A stretch of 10,131 nt of DNA from Ignavibacteriales bacterium. GTDB taxonomy: Bacteria > Bacteroidota > Ignavibacteria > Ignavibacteriales > Ignavibacteriaceae. Below are positions 157-8,110 of this stretch, piece after piece. The notes beneath the pieces were generated by a model that saw nothing but the letters and a program-made list of their open reading frames with translations, did not search any database and had not been told where the DNA came from. The stretch is taken from assembly GCA_020061995.1 (NCBI GenBank), contig JAGUXE010000262.1:1-10131 (forward strand). Reading direction: 5' to 3'. Every line of letters begins with the position of its first letter. The stretch's first letter is position 1. A program made the position numbers and the translations under genes.

Positions 157-1164
157 ATGATTAATCTTGGTCAAATTGGTATAGGTGAATGGGGAAAGAA
201 TCTTTTGAGAAATTTTGTAAATCTAAAAGATTGTTCAGTTAAAATTTGCTGCGATAAGAATAAGTCGGTATTAGAAAAGATTAAATTAAATTACAACGAT
301 AAAATAAAAGTAACCGATAATTTTGATGATTTATTAAAAGATCTTAAATTGGATGCGGTAGTCATTGCTACCCTTCCAGCAACCCATGCCTATTTTGCGA
401 TTAAAGCGCTTTCTAAAGGAAAACACGTCTTTGTGGAAAAACCTCTGGCTTTAAAATTAGAGGATGCAGAAGAGATGATTAGACAAGCTAAGAAAAACAA
501 AAGGATATTAATGGTAGGTCACCTCCTACTTTATCATCCCGCGGTAAAGAAACTTAAGAATTATATCAAGAGTGGGATTTTGGGAGATATACATTATATA
601 TATTCTACCAGGGTAAACTTAGGTCAGGTTCGGCAAGAAGAGAATGCTCTCTGGAGTCTAACTTCTCATGATATCTCTGTGGCTATACATTTATTAGAGA
701 AAATACCGCATCAGGTACTGGCAACAGGTAGACCCTATATCCGTAAACATATTCATGATGTGGTTTTTGTAACCCTTGATTTTAAAGATAACATTATTGT
801 TCATATCCATGCTAGTTGGCTTGATCCCCATAAGATTAGAAAGTTTACTATCGTGGGTTCTAAAAAAATGGCGGTATTTGATGATATGGAGAGTACAGAA
901 AAGATACGTATCTATGATAAGGGTTTCAACTGGCAGAAGAACTACGGAAACTACGAAACCTTTCTTACCTTGCGCGAAGGAGATATACATATACCTAAAA
1001 TAAATATGGTAGAACCTCTGAAATTAGAATGCCAGCATTTTATTGACTGTATACACAGAAACCAAGACCCTCTCACCGATGGCAATAATGGGCTGGAAGT
1101 TTTGAGGGTCTTGGATGTAGCACAAAAATCTTTAGAAGCAAATGGTAAGACAATCAAAATCTAA
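157..1164 (+). CDS. wlbA: Gfo/Idh/MocA sugar-nucleotide dehydrogenase, WlbA/WbpB type
   Basis: This is a probable NAD-dependent 3-dehydrogenase acting on UDP-GlcNAcA (UDP-N-acetylglucosaminuronic acid), which makes the 3-keto sugar that is then aminated. The 335-residue protein has the usual full length. An N-terminal Rossmann fold carries GIGEWG (8-13). The family EKP motif is at 94-96, with Lys95 the expected catalytic lysine. The GHLLLYHPA segment (121-129) and the N-L-G-x-x-R-x-E-E-N-A-L-W stretch (154-166) are typical of the WlbA subgroup. His171 in the following SHDIS is the second expected catalytic residue. The start is supported by a strong Shine-Dalgarno site. The 3' end overlaps the next gene, an N-acetyltransferase of the same pathway, by 23 bases, which supports the assignment. 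A related inositol-type or other sugar dehydrogenase is the alternative, but the neighbours make that less likely. Confidence 0.88.
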
Positions 1165-1738
1165 AAAATTAGATTATTTTGTTCACGAATCATCCTATAT
1201 AGATGAAGGAGTAGATATCGGTAAGGGCACTCAAATCTGGCACTTCTGCCATATTCTAAAAGGCTCTAAGATCGGTCAGAATTGCAAGATCGGTCAGAAC
1301 GTGGTTATCGGTTCCGATGTAAAAATAGGTAATAATGTCAAGATTCAAAATAACGTTTCAGTATATAAAGGAGTCACTTTAGAAGACGATGTCTTCTGCG
1401 GACCTTCCTGTGTCTTTACTAATGTATTTAATCCCAGGAGCACTATACCGAGGATGGATGAAATTCGTCCTACATTGGTCAAAAGGGGCGCAACTTTAGG
1501 GGCTAATGCTACCATTGTCTGTGGTCATACTATTGGAAAATTTGCCTTCATCGGAGCGGGATCAGTAGTTACCAAAGATGTTCCTGATTATGCCTTGGTT
1601 TATGGCAATCCTGCCTGCATAAAAGGATGGATCTGCGAATGTGGGGAGAAGTTAAAATTTAATCGATTAAAAGCAAACTGTATAGGATGTTCAAAGAGCT
1701 ATATGAAAAGCAGGGAGGGTATAAAAAGAATTCAATAA
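1142..1738 (+). CDS. wlbB: Left-handed beta-helix N-acetyltransferase, WlbB/WbpD type
   Basis: This is a probable acetyl-CoA-dependent transferase that acetylates the 3-amino group of UDP-GlcNAc3NA, giving UDP-GlcNAc3NAcA. The 198-residue protein is built from hexapeptide repeats of the (I/V)-G-x-x-x-x kind from about residue 20 to 155, including [20 protein letters not shown]. It continues with the FTNVFNPR and GNPA motifs usual in WbpD/WlbB enzymes. After the helix come C-x-C and C-x2-C pairs (roughly 166-182), a small zinc-ribbon-like tail seen in many homologues outside the Pseudomonas type. The ATG at 1142 is the first possible start after an in-frame TAG at 1133-1135. It lies inside the end of the dehydrogenase gene and has no clear Shine-Dalgarno site, so translational coupling is likely. 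Confidence 0.88.
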
Positions 1739-1741
1739 ATT

Positions 1742-1784
1742 ATTCGTGAGAATTAGTTACAAATTAGTGAAAATTAGCGATTAG
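1742..1784 (+). repeat. Short tandem array of degenerate 10-11-bp ATTAGTGAAA-like units
   Basis: Most of the gap between the acetyltransferase and the epimerase consists of four successive units: ATTCGTGAGA (1742), ATTAGTTACAA (1752), ATTAGTGAAA (1763) and ATTAGCGATTAG (1773). The last unit ends directly at the ATG at 1785. No Shine-Dalgarno site is seen here. It may be a minisatellite-like intergenic element; no function can be read from it. Confidence 0.6.
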
Positions 1785-2894
1785 ATGATAATATTAATTA
1801 ATATAGTCGGCGCACGACCACAGTTTATAAAACTAACTGCTATATGTAGAGCCATAGATAAGTTCAATAAGAACTGTGGCAAGAAATCTCGAATTCGTAA
1901 TATCATCCTGCACACCGGACAACACTACGATTATACAATGAGCGATATATTCTTTAATGAATTGAGTATTCCTAAAGTCCATTATAATCTCGCAGTTGGC
2001 TCAGCCAGCCACGCTAGGCAAACTGGTCTGATGCTGGAAAGAATCGAGAGGGTCTTGAAGAAAGAAAATCCCGATATAGCGCTTGTTTATGGCGATACCA
2101 ATTCTACCCTTGCTGGTGCCTTGGCAGCAGCCAAGTTAAATATTCCAGTAGCCCATATTGAGGCAGGCCTACGTAGCTATAACAAAAATATGCCTGAGGA
2201 GATAAACCGAATTCTGACCGACCACATCTCAACGTTCCTCTTCTGTCCCACACAGACAGCAGCAAATAACTTAGCCAATGAAGGCATAACAAAAGGGGTA
2301 TTCAAAGTTGGTGATGTGATGTTCGATGCCCTTTTATATTACTTACAGAGAGCTAAAAAAAGGTCGAATATTTTAAAAGCATTCCAACTTAAGCCCAAAC
2401 ATTTTTATCTTTCCACCATCCATAGACAAGAGAATACTGATAATCTAAAGCAACTTGAGTCTATACTGAGGATTTTAAATGAAGTGGCTAATCAAGGAAA
2501 TATTGTAGTTTTTCCTCTCCACCCCCGCACTAAAAAGGCAATAAACTTATTGAAGTTCAAATACAACCCTTTATACCTTAAGATGATAGGACCAGTTTCT
2601 TATCTGGATATGCTCCTCTTGGAGAAGAACGCCAGGGCGGTCCTGACTGACTCCGGAGGAGTTCAGAAAGAGGCATTCTTTCTTAAAGTTCCCTGTATAA
2701 CCTTGAGGAATGAGACTGAGTGGGTGGAGACCCTACAGGTCGGTGGAAATACCCTCACCGGGGTGGATAGTAAGAGTATAAACAGAGTACTCAAGGACCT
2801 GTCAACCAAGAAGGTTGGTTTCTGTAAGGTATTTGGAGATGGAAAGGCAGCGGAGAGAACAATCGACATACTTGCTTCGTTATTGGAAGGTTAG
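1785..2894 (+). CDS. wecB: Non-hydrolysing UDP-N-acetylglucosamine 2-epimerase (WecB/WbpI family)
   Basis: This enzyme inverts C2 of a UDP-HexNAc. In this context it most likely converts UDP-GlcNAc3NAcA to UDP-ManNAc3NAcA (the WbpI/WlbD step); UDP-GlcNAc to UDP-ManNAc is the alternative. The 369-residue length is standard, with two Rossmann-like (GT-B type) domains. Visible motifs are GARPQF (9-14), HTGQHYD (43-49), GDTNST (103-108), HIEAGLRS (124-131), PEEINR (137-142), HRQEN (213-217) and, near the C terminus, TDSGGVQKEA and RNETEW. The residues matching E. coli WecB Asp95, Glu117, Glu131 and His213 are all kept: Asp104, Glu126, Glu138 and His213. The gene is intact and follows the acetyltransferase by 46 bases. 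It has no obvious Shine-Dalgarno site, but the ATG at 1785 gives the expected N terminus. Confidence 0.93.
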   Translation: MIILINIVGARPQFIKLTAICRAIDKFNKNCGKKSRIRNIILHTGQHYDYTMSDIFFNELSIPKVHYNLAVGSASHARQTGLMLERIERVLKKENPDIALVYGDTNSTLAGALAAAKLNIPVAHIEAGLRSYNKNMPEEINRILTDHISTFLFCPTQTAANNLANEGITKGVFKVGDVMFDALLYYLQRAKKRSNILKAFQLKPKHFYLSTIHRQENTDNLKQLESILRILNEVANQGNIVVFPLHPRTKKAINLLKFKYNPLYLKMIGPVSYLDMLLLEKNARAVLTDSGGVQKEAFFLKVPCITLRNETEWVETLQVGGNTLTGVDSKSINRVLKDLSTKKVGFCKVFGDGKAAERTIDILASLLEG

Positions 2895-3012: not shown

Positions 3013-3915
3013 GTGAAAAGTTATAAGTATTTCTGGTACAGATTGTTATGGAATTATGCCGGCGTTCTTCCAAGAAGGTTTATGCCTGTTCATCTCGACC
3101 TTGAGTTAACCAGTCGCTGTAATCTTGCTTGTGTAATGTGCCCTCATTCAGAGAGCAAAAAGCCTTTTAATATCGGTGACATGTCTTTAGATTTGGCAAA
3201 AACCCTGATAAAAGAGGGCCCTAATAAAATCAAGTCCGTTAAATTTAATTGGCGAGGGGAGCCAACATTATATAGGTATCTGCCCGAAGTAATAGCTTAT
3301 GCAAAGAAAAATGGATACATTGAAACAATGATTAATACTAATCTTAACTGTTCTAAAAAAATTTTGGAGGAGACTGTTCAAGCAGGAATAGATAAAATCA
3401 TTATATCGATTGACAGTTTCAATAAGAAAATTTATTCCCAGACAAGAGTGGGAGGGAATCTTGAGTTAGTTTTAGAAAATTTAGAGTATTTAAGGAACCG
3501 GCGTAGATTTAAAAACTTTAAATTTGAGATAGTTGTTCAGGCCAGAAGACAAAAATTAAATGAAGCTGAGATTTTTCCAAAGTGGGTTTTAATAAGACCT
3601 GCGACAAAAAGAACTGAAGGTAGCGATTATCTTCTTGATAATCAAAAGTCTATTGGCAGAAAGAATTGCTTAATGCCGTTCAGGCGATTATTGATAAGCT
3701 GGGAAGGCAGAGCTTTTGGTTGCTGCGCAGATTGGTATGAGCTTAATAGTGTTGGGCAAGTTGGATATTCGAATGGCCAAACATTATCTGAAATCTGGAA
3801 TGGTAAACTCATTGATAAACTTCGCAAGGACTTAACGAATGGCAAGGCTTTTGAATATGAGCCATGTAAATCATGCTTTAGTAAGGAGGCTTATATATGG
3901 AAAAAGTCGGAATAA
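3013..3915 (+). CDS. Radical SAM protein with SPASM-like C-terminal cluster domain
   Basis: The 300-residue protein has the radical SAM 4Fe-4S signature C-x3-C-x2-C at Cys36, Cys40 and Cys43, preceded by LDLELTSR. The C-terminal part carries more cysteines (Cys219, Cys237, Cys238, Cys285, Cys288), in the pattern of a SPASM/twitch domain binding auxiliary iron-sulfur clusters. Such proteins occur in many surface-glycan and peptide-modification loci. The substrate here cannot be read from sequence; a tailoring step on a sugar, such as epimerisation, dehydration or oxidation, is plausible from context only. A TGA at 3001-3003 limits extension upstream, so the GTG at 3013 is the best start, with a weak GAAAG before it. 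An internal ATG (Met24) would still keep the cluster motif. The 3' end overlaps the next gene by 19 bases. No precursor peptide is seen next to it. Confidence 0.85.
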   Translation: MKSYKYFWYRLLWNYAGVLPRRFMPVHLDLELTSRCNLACVMCPHSESKKPFNIGDMSLDLAKTLIKEGPNKIKSVKFNWRGEPTLYRYLPEVIAYAKKNGYIETMINTNLNCSKKILEETVQAGIDKIIISIDSFNKKIYSQTRVGGNLELVLENLEYLRNRRRFKNFKFEIVVQARRQKLNEAEIFPKWVLIRPATKRTEGSDYLLDNQKSIGRKNCLMPFRRLLISWEGRAFGCCADWYELNSVGQVGYSNGQTLSEIWNGKLIDKLRKDLTNGKAFEYEPCKSCFSKEAYIWKKSE

Positions 3916-5285
3916 TCCTTAGCGCAAGAACCGATTCGGAACGATTACCAAATAAAATTTTACTTCCCTTAAAGGGGGAATTAACCTGTTTTGAATTTCA
4001 ACTGCTTAATTTAAAAAAATCACGCTATCCGGTTGTAGTCGCAGTGCCTTATAAAGATTCTAAAAAGAATATTCTTGAACAAATCTGCAAAAAACATAAT
4101 ATCCCATTTTACTCCAATCCCGATATAGACGAAGAAGACGTGTTGGGCAGATTTGTGGCTTGCGCCAAACATTTTGGATTTGACCACGTAGGAAGAATAA
4201 CCCATGATGATATATTTTTTGATCATGAATTATTTGAAGCGATGGTAGAATGGCATCTTAAAAATAATGCCGACCATACCAATTGCCCTCAAGCTCCTCG
4301 CGGAATCGATAGCGAAGTGATTAGAGTAAACGCTTTAGAGATAGCCGAGAGCCACACTCGTCATCTGAAACACAGAGAGCACATTACTTATTATGTAAAA
4401 AGACCGCCTTTTAAATTTATTGAGATGCCCCTCGATTTTAGAGTGGCTTTGGATTATATGGAAGATTATGAAGTCATAAAGAAAGTAGCAGAATCGCTTG
4501 GCGATGAATGCTTGGCTGATGAATTAAGAAAGATTTTCTTAAAAAATCCCCAATTAATCCATGCTAATCGTTTACCCAGGGTATCAGTTTCTATCTGCTG
4601 TAAGGACTACGGTAGGTTTCTGGAGAAAGCCATAGGAAGTGCTTTAAATCAAAGCTTGCAGGATATAGAACTTGTTTTATTGGATGATGGCTCGAAGGAT
4701 AATACCTGGGAGATTATGTGTAAATATGATAAAGTAAAAAAATTCAGAAATGAGCAATCTGTTGGTTTGATAAAAGCTTCCCAATACATTTCCAGTTTTT
4801 GCAGAGGAGAATATATTATGCGCTTAGATGCCGATGATTGGCTGGAACCAAATGCGCTGGAAATCATGGCAAATTGGCTGGATAGGAATAGAGCTTACAA
4901 TGCTGTTTTTTCAGATTTTAAAATCTTTTGGGAGAACTCTAATACATATCAATTAGTAAAAGCAGACAGCCTTAAGATGCCTCACCCTGCTTGTGCGCTT
5001 ATTAGACGCCATGCTTGGAATGATATTAAAGTCAACGAAGGTCTTACCTGTAGAGACGGCTGGGATTTTTGGATAAAATTCAGACAAAGATTTTTAGTTG
5101 GTTATATACCCGAGCCATTATGGAACTATCGTAAGCATGGCGATAGCTTATCACAGAAGAAAGAGAGTTTAGATATCGAAGCCGATATTTGTATTAATAG
5201 CTTAAAGGACATCCTTGAAAAAAGAGAAAAAGAGTTTAATTCTAACGATGATAAAAGAGAGGGTTTAACAAATGAAGAAAATTAA
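3897..5285 (+). CDS. Fusion of SpsF-type cytidylyltransferase and family 2 glycosyltransferase
   Basis: This 462-residue protein has two domains. Residues 1 to about 225 resemble the SpsF/NeuA/KdsB-like nucleotidyltransferases: SARTDSERLPNK (9-20) is the nucleotide-binding loop, EEDVLGRF lies at 79-86, and RITHDD (100-105) stands where SpsF proteins have R-I-T-G-D-C. Residues 229 to about 420 are a GT-A family 2 glycosyltransferase with VSVSICCKDYG, DDGS (263-266) and the metal/nucleotide-binding DADD (311-314). The tail after about 440 is charged and probably disordered. The first domain may activate an acidic sugar as a CMP ester, and the second transfers some activated sugar. Whether both use the same sugar is unknown. 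The gene starts inside the radical SAM gene, with AAGGAGG about 8 bases before its ATG. It overlaps the synthase gene by 14 bases. Confidence 0.87.
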   Translation: MEKVGIILSARTDSERLPNKILLPLKGELTCFEFQLLNLKKSRYPVVVAVPYKDSKKNILEQICKKHNIPFYSNPDIDEEDVLGRFVACAKHFGFDHVGRITHDDIFFDHELFEAMVEWHLKNNADHTNCPQAPRGIDSEVIRVNALEIAESHTRHLKHREHITYYVKRPPFKFIEMPLDFRVALDYMEDYEVIKKVAESLGDECLADELRKIFLKNPQLIHANRLPRVSVSICCKDYGRFLEKAIGSALNQSLQDIELVLLDDGSKDNTWEIMCKYDKVKKFRNEQSVGLIKASQYISSFCRGEYIMRLDADDWLEPNALEIMANWLDRNRAYNAVFSDFKIFWENSNTYQLVKADSLKMPHPACALIRRHAWNDIKVNEGLTCRDGWDFWIKFRQRFLVGYIPEPLWNYRKHGDSLSQKKESLDIEADICINSLKDILEKREKEFNSNDDKREGLTNEEN

Positions 5286-6000
5286 GATCTGGGCTGGCAG
5301 TTGTATGATAGAAAATAAAAAACAGGCATTGGAGACAGCAAACTTTGTGAAAGATATGGGTTGCCAAGTTTATCGTTCTAAGGTTTGGGGTGGTGGTACT
5401 AAGCCACCCCGTTTCTGGGGTTTAGGAGTAGAGGGCTTGGAGATTATGCAGGAAATTTCTCAAAAGATCATGCCCGTAGCCATTGAAGTACAAAGTAAAG
5501 AGCATTTAATTCAAGCCAAAGACTATAAAATAGACTACATCTGGATTGCAGCGCGTGCCATGCAAAATTATAACTTATTAAGTTCTGAAGAATTATCCAA
5601 ATTTAATACCATAGTGTTAAAAAGAGGATTAGGCAGTACTTTAGATGAATGGGAAGGGGCGGCCTTGTATTTAAGAGATAAGGGAGTAAAGAACATAATT
5701 TTTTGCGAACGTGGAACCGTCCATTTTGACCGTCATCCGGAAATACGCTGGCGTCCCGACATTTTATCCTTAGTTCAAGCAAAAGAAAGAGGCTATGAAG
5801 TAATGTTTGATTGCTCGCATTCAGTGGGGAAAAGTGAATATGTAATTCCCATGGCTTTGTCTGCTGTTGCCGCTGGGGCTGATTATTTGATGGTTGAGGT
5901 CCATGAAGGAGAAAGTTTAAGTGATAAGAGGCAAACTTTGAACTTTTTACAATTTGAAGAACTTGTAAAAAAAGTAAGAAATTTGGAAAAAGTTTTATAA
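5272..6000 (+). CDS. DAHP/Kdo-8-phosphate synthase family protein, divergent short form
   Basis: This is a probable PEP-dependent aldolase making a 3-deoxy-ulosonic acid (or its phosphate) from PEP and an aldose. The 242-residue TIM-barrel protein has the metal-ligand set of the class: Cys11 in AGSC, His183 in CSH, Glu209 in EVH and Asp218 in SDKRQTL. PEP-site motifs are also kept: AARAMQN (93-99), LKRG (116-119) and CERG (145-148). The segment that binds the phosphorylated acceptor in DAHP synthases (K-P-R-T-S-P) or Kdo8P synthases (K-A-N-R-S-S) instead reads KPPRFWGLG (44-52). The loop between Glu209 and Asp218 is two residues shorter than in Thermotoga DAHP synthase. I infer a non-standard aldose acceptor. 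It is too short for, and lacks, an ACT or chorismate-mutase regulatory domain. It lies between a cytidylyltransferase fusion and a GT30 relative, so aromatic biosynthesis is unlikely to be its role. Confidence 0.85.
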   Translation: MKKIKIWAGSCMIENKKQALETANFVKDMGCQVYRSKVWGGGTKPPRFWGLGVEGLEIMQEISQKIMPVAIEVQSKEHLIQAKDYKIDYIWIAARAMQNYNLLSSEELSKFNTIVLKRGLGSTLDEWEGAALYLRDKGVKNIIFCERGTVHFDRHPEIRWRPDILSLVQAKERGYEVMFDCSHSVGKSEYVIPMALSAVAAGADYLMVEVHEGESLSDKRQTLNFLQFEELVKKVRNLEKVL

Positions 6001-6019
6001 TTTTGAGTATGTATGCTTT

Positions 6020-7399
6020 ATGAAATTCAATAATTTTTACATAAGAGCTGCTTATGTCTTAAAAGCCTATTTTTATTTACCTATAACTTTTACTAAAAGA
6101 GTGGTTTTTGGTCGTGATTCCTATTGGAAACAGTTCTTTTGGTCGCGTTGGGGATTTCCGCCTAAGGAATTACTTAAGAAGTCTAAAGAAAAAAAGACAA
6201 TCTGGATAAATGCCCAGGCAGGAGGAGAGGTAACTCAGATTTTTACCTTCTGTAAATTATTACGGCAGCAATTTGTCGATTATTGTCTAATTGCTTCTGT
6301 AAATGAATATCGTCCTCTATTAGCAGCACGCCGAATTAAGGAATTGGATTTTGTATTTGATCAACCCTGGGATTTAGATTCGGTAACAAGGAGGACCTTA
6401 AAGAAAATAAAGCCAATAGCTTTAATTTTTGTAGAACATGCACCTTATCCTAAGCTTCTTAAAAATGCAACTAGGTTAGGGATTCCTACTATACTGGTAA
6501 GTGGTTTTATGAGCAAAAATTGGCCTAAGCATCAATCTCAGATAAGGCCAATTGCTTTAAAATTTTATCGTTATTTACAATACATAGGGGTAAAAGAAGA
6601 AATAGATGCCCAGGGATACCTTAATCTTGGTGCACCGCCTGAGCGTATAAAAGTTACAGGCAATATGAAATTTGATTTGGATTACTTAACTCTTTCTGAA
6701 GAAGAGAAGGATAACTTATATCAACAATTAAGGTTAAAAAAAGAAGATTTGATTTTTTTGGCTGCAAGTTTATTAGGAGACGAAGGAAGAATAGTCATTG
6801 AGGCCTACAATGAGCTCAAAAAATACTATCCACACTTAAAACTGATATTTGTTCCGCGTTACAACAATATAATTCCTGAGGCAGAAGAATTTTTAACCAG
6901 ATTAAATTTTAAATGGGTCAGAAGAACACAGATCAATAAAATCAAAGAAGATAATTTTGATGTAATAATTGTGGATACATTTGGAGAGCTAAATCGACTC
7001 TATGCCTTGGCTTCAGTCATTTTTTTAGGTGGTAGCATCGTAAAAAGTAGCAATCTGGCTTATGGAAAGAATATAATCGAGCCATTAATTCAAAAAAAAC
7101 CCATATTTTTTGGCCCGCATATGAGACACTGGGTAGAAATAATTTGGCAATTAAAAAATATTTACCCTTACTTAGAAGTACATGATTCTAAAGAATTGAC
7201 CCAGGCAGTTATAAATCTTTTAAAAAATCCTCTTATTATTGATAGATTAAAGACAAAAGCCCAGGAAATTATCGACCTTAATCAAGATGCAGTTAGAAAT
7301 AATGTAGAATTTGTAACTGAAGTTATTAGAAGGGTAAATAAAACAATAAAGGAAGGAGTGGAGAATGAAAAAAGACAATATCTTTGCCGAGCCAGTTAA
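6020..7399 (+). CDS. GT30 family (WaaA/KdtA-like) 3-deoxy-ulosonic acid transferase, divergent
   Basis: This is a probable GT-B glycosyltransferase that transfers a CMP-activated 3-deoxy-ulosonic acid. The 459-residue protein aligns in outline with Kdo transferase. WINAQAGGEV (62-71) sits where WaaA has W-I-H-x-x-S-x-G-E, and Glu70 matches the catalytic glutamate. VEHAPYP (139-144) sits at the V-E-x-E-L-W-P motif. VTGNMKFD (212-219) and VDTFGEL are nearly identical to the family, as are GGS (337-339), IIEP (352-355) and FFGPH. Departures are His to Asn in the first motif and YGKN where WaaA usually has G-G-H-N. The N terminus (about 5-30) is moderately hydrophobic and basic, consistent with membrane association. 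The gene is about 30-40 residues longer than the E. coli enzyme. The start has only a weak ribosome site, and the end overlaps cmoA by 35 bases. Confidence 0.85.
   Translation: MKFNNFYIRAAYVLKAYFYLPITFTKRVVFGRDSYWKQFFWSRWGFPPKELLKKSKEKKTIWINAQAGGEVTQIFTFCKLLRQQFVDYCLIASVNEYRPLLAARRIKELDFVFDQPWDLDSVTRRTLKKIKPIALIFVEHAPYPKLLKNATRLGIPTILVSGFMSKNWPKHQSQIRPIALKFYRYLQYIGVKEEIDAQGYLNLGAPPERIKVTGNMKFDLDYLTLSEEEKDNLYQQLRLKKEDLIFLAASLLGDEGRIVIEAYNELKKYYPHLKLIFVPRYNNIIPEAEEFLTRLNFKWVRRTQINKIKEDNFDVIIVDTFGELNRLYALASVIFLGGSIVKSSNLAYGKNIIEPLIQKKPIFFGPHMRHWVEIIWQLKNIYPYLEVHDSKELTQAVINLLKNPLIIDRLKTKAQEIIDLNQDAVRNNVEFVTEVIRRVNKTIKEGVENEKRQYLCRAS
7351..7358 (+). promoter_or_regulatory. Shine-Dalgarno site for the cmoA homologue
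   Basis: GGAAGGAG lies six bases before the ATG at 7365, inside the end of the GT30-like gene. It is one of the strongest ribosome sites in the window. It supports both the start and the view that this gene was recently functional despite its frameshift. Confidence 0.8.
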
Positions 7400-8110
7400 A
7401 AAAACCAAGGATTTTTCTTTTGACGAAATTACTGCCGTTGTTTTTGATGATATGTTAGAAAGAAGCGTACCCTTCTACAATGAGATCCAAAGGATGATTG
7501 TAGAAATAACAAGAAAGTTTGCGCAAGATGGTAAGGTAGTTTATGATTTAGGTTGCTCCACTGGCACAACCTTAATCAATCTGATGAAAAATTTAGATAA
7601 CTTTAAGGTATCTTACATGGGTATAGATTCATGGGTATAGATTACTCAGAGGCAATGCTTAAAAGAGCAAAGCTTAAGATTAAAAGCGAAGTTAAAGGTA
7701 GAAAAAGATATCGCTTAATTCAAGCTGATTTAAATGAAGATGTAGATTTGAATAATGCCTGTGTAATAATTATGAATCTTATTTTGCAGTTTATCCGTCC
7801 TTTAAATAGAGATAGATTCATTAAAAATATATATAGCGGCTTAGTTAAAAATGGATGCCTAATCCTTATCGAAAAAATAATAGGCAACAATTCCCTATTC
7901 AACAGGACTTTTATCGAATTCTATTACGATTTTAAAAGAAGGAATGGTTATTCTGAGTTGGAGATAGCCAAAAAAAGGGAGGCCCTAGAAAATGTCCTTA
8001 TACCTTATCGGCTTGACGAAAATTTAACACTTTTACAGAAAAGCGGTTTTAGGCACACTGATATATTTTTTAAATGGTATAATTTTTGTGGATTGTTAGC
8101 TATAAAGTAA
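7365..8110 (+). pseudogene. cmoA: cmoA homologue (carboxy-SAM synthase family) split by a frameshift
   Basis: Read across the break, the two frames give about 244 residues that match E. coli CmoA over its length. CmoA makes carboxy-S-adenosylmethionine from SAM and prephenate, used by CmoB to modify wobble uridine in tRNA. Frame 1 (7365-7640) holds the N terminus with FDDMLERSVPFY and the SAM-binding VYDLGCSTGT. Frame 2 (7631-8110) resumes at GIDYSEAM and holds ILQFI, DFKRRNGYSELEI and AKKREALENV. The arginine of that last segment corresponds to E. coli Arg199, which binds the carboxylate of carboxy-SAM. Removing one copy of an exact 14-bp tandem duplication at 7616-7643 restores one continuous frame. 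Frame 2 has its own ATG (7631) overlapping the first stop by 10 bases but no ribosome site, so a split two-chain product by coupling is possible but unproven. No cmoB is in the window. Confidence 0.88.
7616..7643 (+). repeat. Exact 14-bp tandem duplication inside cmoA
   Basis: CATGGGTATAGATT occurs twice head to tail at 7616-7629 and 7630-7643, without mismatch. The flanking bases do not extend the match. Fourteen is not a multiple of three, so the duplication shifts the frame and creates TAG at 7638-7640. With one copy deleted the reading runs Ser-Tyr-Met-Gly-Ile-Asp-Tyr-Ser-Glu-Ala-Met, matching the CmoA family at this site. Confidence 0.95.

What the first reader, a model, noticed from the sequence alone, without database searches (positions are those of the whole stretch)
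3897..7399. Adjacent synthase, cytidylyltransferase and GT30 genes: a possible pathway for a non-Kdo 3-deoxy-ulosonic acid
Seen: three consecutive, overlapping or nearly abutting genes are relatives of KdsA (aldolase), KdsB/NeuA (CMP activation) and WaaA (transfer). Known: the Kdo pathway uses these three activities plus a phosphatase (KdsC). Inferred: each protein departs from its canonical family (acceptor loop of the synthase, SpsF-type rather than KdsB-type activation, H-to-N change in the transferase), so the module probably handles a distinct ulosonic acid that decorates the surface glycan. No phosphatase is in the window; the acceptor may be unphosphorylated or a phosphatase may lie elsewhere.
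Basis: partly seen in the sequence, partly recalled or inferred. Interest (0 to 1): 0.8.

Follow-up and report, generated by a model that had tools for sequence, protein, structure and literature searches.

The report
Pathway for an unusual acidic sugar
Three neighbouring genes in an uncultured bacterium look like an assembly line that makes, activates and attaches an acidic surface sugar related to, but probably not the same as, the common sugar Kdo, using a synthase with a rebuilt sugar-binding site.

The parts
3897..5285 (+). fusion: SpsF-type cytidylyltransferase (aa 1-220) and GT2 glycosyltransferase (aa about 223-430)
   Evidence: Pfam CTP_transf_3 and Glycos_transf_2; nearest solved cytidylyltransferase 6oew, 1.6e-23; five relatives at 70-76% identity with the same domain order
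3897..4556 (+). cytidylyltransferase domain; RLPNK, THDD and DYMEDYE motifs
   Evidence: K20, D105, D109, D186, E189 and D190 invariant in the 10-row alignment
4563..5186 (+). GT2 domain with DDGS and DADD motifs
5272..6000 (+). DAHP/Kdo8P-synthase-superfamily synthase, barrel only, 242 aa
5374..5421 (+). rebuilt acceptor loop of the synthase (residues 35-50, RSKVWGGGTKPPRFWG)
   Evidence: K131, R133 and S135 of T. maritima DAHPS replaced by G, G and K/R in 8 of 8 clade members; K37 gained
5716..5760 (+). second changed loop (residues 149-163, TVHFDRHPEIRWRPD)
   Evidence: R240 of DAHPS replaced by V/A; R154, W160 and R161 present in 8 of 8 clade members
6020..7399 (+). GT30 (WaaA-like) transferase, donor-site residues kept, some lipid-side residues changed
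3013..3915 (+). radical SAM/SPASM protein overlapping the fusion gene by 19 bp; relation to the module unknown

Best explanation
A surface-glycan operon carries a small module for a 3-deoxy-2-ulosonic acid other than Kdo. Step 1 (inferred from kept metal and PEP residues): the synthase condenses phosphoenolpyruvate with an aldose. Its acceptor site is rebuilt, so the aldose is neither erythrose 4-phosphate nor arabinose 5-phosphate in the usual binding mode; it may be unphosphorylated, which would fit the lack of a phosphatase in the window. Step 2 (inferred): the SpsF-type domain turns the free acid into its CMP form. Step 3 (inferred): the GT30 transfers it from CMP to a glycan or glycolipid that need not be lipid IVA, and the fused GT2 domain adds a neighbouring sugar or transfers the same residue. 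The core is the synthase plus the fusion gene; the GT30 is a partner in this cluster but not a fixed one. Shown here: the domains, the synthase clade, which residues are kept or lost, and an indirect sign of linkage. Not shown: any activity, or the sugar.
For: Synthase: metal ligands C11, H183, E209, D218 and PEP residues R35, R95, K117, R147 (T. maritima C102, H272, E298, D309; R126, R186, K207, R237; roles recalled) kept in 8 of 8 clade rows. K131, R133 and R240, present in 30, 29 and 30 of 30 DAHPS-type rows, are absent in 8 of 8. The clade is well supported (100/99) and, with 8 further rows, lies apart from the DAHPS rows of the tree (100/100, branch 1.41). AF2 pLDDT 93.2. Activation: SpsF-like domain; K20 and D105 line up with the Lys and first Asp of E. 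coli KdsB (roles from passages of PMC3149649). B. subtilis spsF is assigned to CMP activation and its mutant lacks legionaminic acid on the spore surface (PMC7439481, passages). GT2/CTP_transf_3 fusions exist in both domain orders. Transfer: 11 of 11 WaaA residues named in PMC6286764 section 14 for CMP binding or activity (G30, E31, E98, K162, P211, R212, F247, G248, L250, N273, E276) are kept in the window protein, while S28 is Ala and W102 is Tyr; W102 is Trp in 0 of 53 subfamily rows and 67 of 67 other listed GT30s. Linkage: equal longest-contig lengths, 16347 bp for all three genes, 16073 and 15849 bp for synthase plus fusion.
Against: Linkage rests on equal contig lengths, not on contigs read. 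Of 7 non-window synthase clusters 3 share a length with a fusion cluster and 4 do not: P0002 (1691 bp, too short for both genes), P0006 (2356), P0004 (3979) and P0007 (34579). Of 5 close fusion clusters, P0242 (1614, too short) and P0246 (14776) have no listed synthase. The GT30 is listed for 1 of the 3 linked contigs. K131, recalled to touch PEP as well as the acceptor, is lost, so the chemistry could differ. The changed loop is the least certain part of the model (block mean 68 for residues 41-50; 82 for 151-160). Conserved basic residues (K37, K/R44, R154, R161) could bind a phosphate in a new way. On the GT30 lipid side, S28 is still Ser in 33 of 53 subfamily rows and the window's W102 is an aromatic Tyr, so a lipid acceptor is not excluded. 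The second metal Asp of KdsB was not placed in the window domain. In PMC7439481 the spsF mutant was not restored by complementation.
Confidence: 0.58

Rival explanations
1. Two-gene module only: synthase and SpsF-GT2 fusion make, activate and (through the GT2 domain) transfer the acid, and the GT30 next door is an independent Kdo-type transferase of the same glycan cluster.
For: GT2/cytidylyltransferase fusions exist in both domain orders. The GT30 subfamily (53 listed) is commoner than the synthase clade (8 listed).
Against: No GT2 enzyme using a CMP-ulosonic donor is known to me (recalled). The GT30 gene starts 19 bp after the synthase gene and its product keeps the CMP-site residues.
Confidence: 0.25
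2. Divergent housekeeping Kdo pathway of an odd lineage: the synthase is this lineage's KdsA replacement and the product is ordinary Kdo.
For: Synthase, cytidylyltransferase and GT30 of the Kdo route are all represented, and the GT30 CMP-site residues are kept. The host genome could not be searched for other copies.
Against: Kdo8PS models score 52 and 55 bits against cut-offs of 314 and 242. KANRSS is not kept. The clade is rare: 8 clusters listed, and a scan of the genome collection found no member, though it needed an exact short motif. The window shows glycan genes, no lpx or other kds genes.
Confidence: 0.1
3. A specialised DAHP or amino-DAHP synthase feeding aromatic or secondary metabolism, placed by chance next to glycan genes.
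For: The nearest curated models are DAHP synthases, and so are the nearest solved structures.
Against: Each position of KPRTS is kept in 29 or 30 of 30 DAHPS-type rows; in the clade only the T is kept. No other shikimate gene is in the window. The gene overlaps the cytidylyltransferase gene and seems linked to it elsewhere.
Confidence: 0.07

Closest known systems
Kdo pathway KdsA-KdsC-KdsB-WaaA
   Same: PEP-condensing synthase, cytidylyltransferase and GT30 are all represented; the GT30 keeps the 11 checked residues
   Different: Synthase under the KdsA cut-offs (52-55 bits against 314/242), activation domain SpsF-like and fused to GT2, no phosphatase in the window, WaaA's W102 is Tyr
Type I-beta DAHP synthase (PRK08673 / TIGR01361; T. 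maritima 1rzm)
   Different: KPRTS replaced, R240 lost, a two-residue longer loop with RWR; scores below cut-off
B. subtilis Sps legionaminic acid pathway
   Same: An SpsF-type cytidylyltransferase serving a surface ulosonic acid (PMC7439481 passages)
   Different: Its synthase SpsE is of the NeuB family (recalled), not the DAHPS family; no dehydratase or aminotransferase was hit among the window's ORFs
KGQNRP synthases (P0009, P0010, P0012, P0014, P0015, with P0059 and P0077)
   Same: Share the RWR-type loop and group with the window's clade apart from DAHPS rows
   Different: Keep K131 (7 of 7) and carry Asn at 134 (7 of 7), closer to the KdsA motif; their own grouping is weak (87/55); context unknown

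Membership tests
Kdo8P synthase (KdsA) | Score over NCBIfam cut-off (TIGR01362 314 bits, PRK05198 242 bits) | tested here: not met
   52.1 and 55.2 bits
Kdo8P synthase (KdsA) | KANRSS acceptor motif | tested here: not met
   GGGTKPP at that place in the alignment with E. coli KdsA
DAHP synthase type I-beta | Score over NCBIfam cut-off (PRK08673 335, TIGR01361 267.75) | tested here: not met
   192.5 and 170.8 bits; a DAHPS-type row, P0028, scores 532.5 and 423.4
DAHP synthase type I-beta | Metal ligands Cys, His, Glu, Asp and PEP-binding Arg/Lys | tested here: met
   8 of 8 clade rows for the eight residues listed, except the motif Lys131 (0 of 8), scored in the next row; roles recalled
DAHP synthase type I-beta | KPRTS acceptor motif | tested here: not met
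   0 of 8 clade rows; each position kept in 29 or 30 of 30 DAHPS-type rows
GT30 fold and donor site | GT-B fold like WaaA and CMP-binding/activity residues | tested here: met
WaaA, lipid IVA Kdo transferase | Score over an NCBIfam equivalog cut-off (363-617 bits) | tested here: not met
   Best 198.4 bits
WaaA, lipid IVA Kdo transferase | Lipid-side residues S28 and W102 | tested here: not met
   Ala and Tyr; R56 aligns with Glu in a poorly aligned stretch
PF02348 cytidylyltransferase | Pfam cut-off | tested here: met
   48.4 bits vs 22.6
PF02348 cytidylyltransferase | Catalytic Lys and two metal Asp of KdsB | tested here: inconclusive
   Lys (K20) and first Asp (D105) line up with E. coli KdsB; the second Asp was not placed
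Dedicated Kdo-like trio | Three genes conserved together in other genomes | tested here: inconclusive
   Equal contig lengths: all three in 1 further contig, synthase plus fusion in 2 more; 4 of 7 synthase clusters without a listed partner
Dedicated Kdo-like trio | Separate housekeeping kdsA/kdsB/kdsC/waaA in the genome | not testable with these tools
   No genome held for the window

The most novel reading that the evidence does not exclude
A third functional branch of the DAHP/Kdo8P synthase superfamily that condenses PEP with an unphosphorylated or otherwise new aldose, giving a free 3-deoxy-2-ulosonic acid that a cytidylyltransferase-GT2 fusion activates directly without a phosphatase: a ulosonic acid pathway of a new design and probably a sugar not yet described in bacterial glycans.
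Probability: 0.33. Interest if true: 0.72.

Novelty: new variant of a known kind. Interest (0 to 1): 0.5.

Why it matters
The DAHP/Kdo8P synthase superfamily is known (recalled) chiefly for two acceptors, both sugar phosphates. A clade that keeps the PEP and metal site but rebuilds the acceptor site, next to a CMP-activating enzyme, would be a further outlet and could name a new acidic surface sugar from genes. It gives a short test: three proteins, PEP, CTP and a panel of aldoses. Separately, a GT30 subfamily with a mostly kept CMP site (R212 in 45, N273 in 52, E276 in 53 of 53 rows) but without WaaA's W102 (0 of 53) suggests that GT30 enzymes serve acceptors other than lipid A in uncultured bacteria.

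Tried and rejected
Own-genome search for other Kdo genes: no genome held. Genome-contig scan with the clade alignment: 87 stretches matched a pattern, one encoded a relative, a canonical Tumebacillus DAHP synthase at 35% identity. Viral-contig scans with the synthase, KGQNRP, GT30 and fusion alignments: nothing confirmed. tblastn of the window synthase against phages (12 records) and of P0009 against phages (15) and plasmids (110, of which 20 listed): every best match under 60% identity; the annotated listed ones are called DAHP synthases, two of them with the gene name kdsA. The window synthase was not run against plasmids. Ten paper searches, judged by their listings, showed nothing on a DAHPS-like synthase with a cytidylyltransferase in a glycan cluster; of the papers I opened, passages only were seen (PMC12856342, PMC3149649, PMC7439481), and for PMC6286764 passages plus section 14. 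'Not in print' is only as wide as this. The idea that the GT30 carries a telling His change was rejected.

Rows dropped before counts: the synthase alignment used 46 of the 120 listed hits and the tree 47 of 120 plus two references; 120 of 1032 hits were listed. The GT30 residue count used all 120 listed of 627 plus E. coli WaaA, many of the 67 'other' rows being close to each other; the GT30 tree used 82 of 120 plus E. coli WaaA, the GT30 model 43. P0011 is shown apart from both groups. The E. coli KdsA row has a very long branch, so its place was not used. The eleven proteins scanned for reversed domain order were P0255 and ten picked because the table lists PF02348 for them; their CTP_transf_3 matches are partial and weak (24-39 bits, cut-off 22.6), and my own profile found the N-terminal domain in only 1 of 33 such proteins (32 no hit, 1 reversed, 20 in the window's order, of 53).
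Full report
What is there. The window holds eleven + strand reading frames of 80 aa or more, most of them glycan-type genes. The finding's three genes are at 3897-5285, 5272-6000 and 6020-7399, as stated. The first overlaps the radical SAM/SPASM gene before it by 19 bp and the synthase gene after it by 14 bp; 19 bp separate the synthase and GT30 genes, and the GT30 gene overlaps the next frame by 35 bp. Pfam identifies CTP_transf_3 plus Glycos_transf_2, DAHP_synth_1, and the Kdo transferase N-terminal domain.

Residues. Numbered by T. maritima DAHP synthase, the metal ligands C102, H272, E298, D309 and the PEP residues R126, R186, K207, R237 are kept in 8 of 8 clade rows. K131 and R133 become Gly, S135 becomes Lys or Arg, T134 stays; R240 becomes Val or Ala; K37, R154, W160 and R161 of the window protein are conserved in 8 of 8 and, apart from none of these, are not found in the 30 DAHPS-type rows. 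Residue roles are recalled, not from a call. KdsA's KANRSS is not present either. The KGQNRP rows keep K131. The plainest reading is a PEP-condensing enzyme with a different acceptor. Whether that acceptor lacks a phosphate is open, since new basic residues are conserved too.

The fusion. The N-terminal domain's nearest solved relative is the cytidylyltransferase 6oew (1.6e-23). JGI names the identical protein SpsF, and no KdsB or NeuA model is among its 11 NCBIfam hits. K20, D105, D186 and D190 are invariant in ten rows. K20 and D105 line up with the KdsB Lys and first Asp; the second metal Asp was not placed (KdsB roles from passages of PMC3149649). In B. subtilis, spsF is assigned to CMP activation and its mutant lacks legionaminic acid on the spore surface, though complementation failed (PMC7439481, passages). 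GT2/cytidylyltransferase fusions occur in both orders: of 53 proteins checked with my own profiles 20 have the window's order, 1 the reverse and 32 no match to the cytidylyltransferase profile. Eleven proteins of the latter kind scanned with Pfam have the GT2 first and a weak, partial CTP_transf_3 match behind it (picked as told under Tried and rejected).

Linkage. I could not read other contigs. The protein tables give the longest contig per cluster: 16347 bp for one synthase, one fusion and one GT30; 16073 and 15849 bp for a synthase and a fusion each. Equal lengths by chance seem unlikely to me, but no probability was computed and this is indirect. Of 7 non-window synthase clusters 3 have such a partner and 4 do not (1691, 2356, 3979 and 34579 bp; the first is too short for both genes). 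Of 5 close fusion clusters, two have none (1614, too short, and 14776 bp). An unfused cytidylyltransferase of about 220 aa would have been outside the search's length window.

Function. The most likely function is a 3-deoxy-2-ulosonic acid module, with synthase and fusion as its core and a GT30 as the transferase in this cluster. The absence of a phosphatase in the window fits an unphosphorylated acceptor but is weak evidence, since one may lie elsewhere. The identity of the sugar, the use of the GT2 domain and the existence of separate Kdo genes in the host are unknown. The finding is a new variant of a known kind with a well-defined enzyme clade at its heart, worth a bench test.

Noticed in passing
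window 7365-8110: A CmoA-like (carboxy-SAM synthase family) methyltransferase is split into two frames at a 14-bp perfect tandem duplication (7616-7629 and 7630-7643); the 3' part scores 156.5 bits with the CmoA model TIGR00740 (cut-off 193.3). Assembly error or real mutation; odd gene for a glycan operon.
   Followed up: partly
GT30 rows P0121-P0173 (53 listed): A GT30 subfamily, two members named Omnitrophica, mostly keeps the CMP site but has no Trp at WaaA's W102 (0 of 53).
   Followed up: yes
proteins P0255 and ten others: GT2/cytidylyltransferase fusions in the opposite domain order (11 of 11 scanned, picked for a listed PF02348 except P0255), suggesting repeated coupling of the two activities.
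   Followed up: partly
proteins P0009, P0010, P0012, P0014, P0015: Uncharacterised synthases with KGQNRP in place of KPRTS or KANRSS and the same RWR loop; context unknown.
   Followed up: partly
window 157-2894: Gfo/Idh/MocA dehydrogenase, hexapeptide acetyltransferase and WecB-type epimerase in a row, resembling genes for a diacetamido-mannuronic acid (recalled).
   Followed up: no
window 3013-3915: Radical SAM/SPASM protein whose gene overlaps the fusion gene by 19 bp; possible sugar or peptide modifying enzyme.
   Followed up: no
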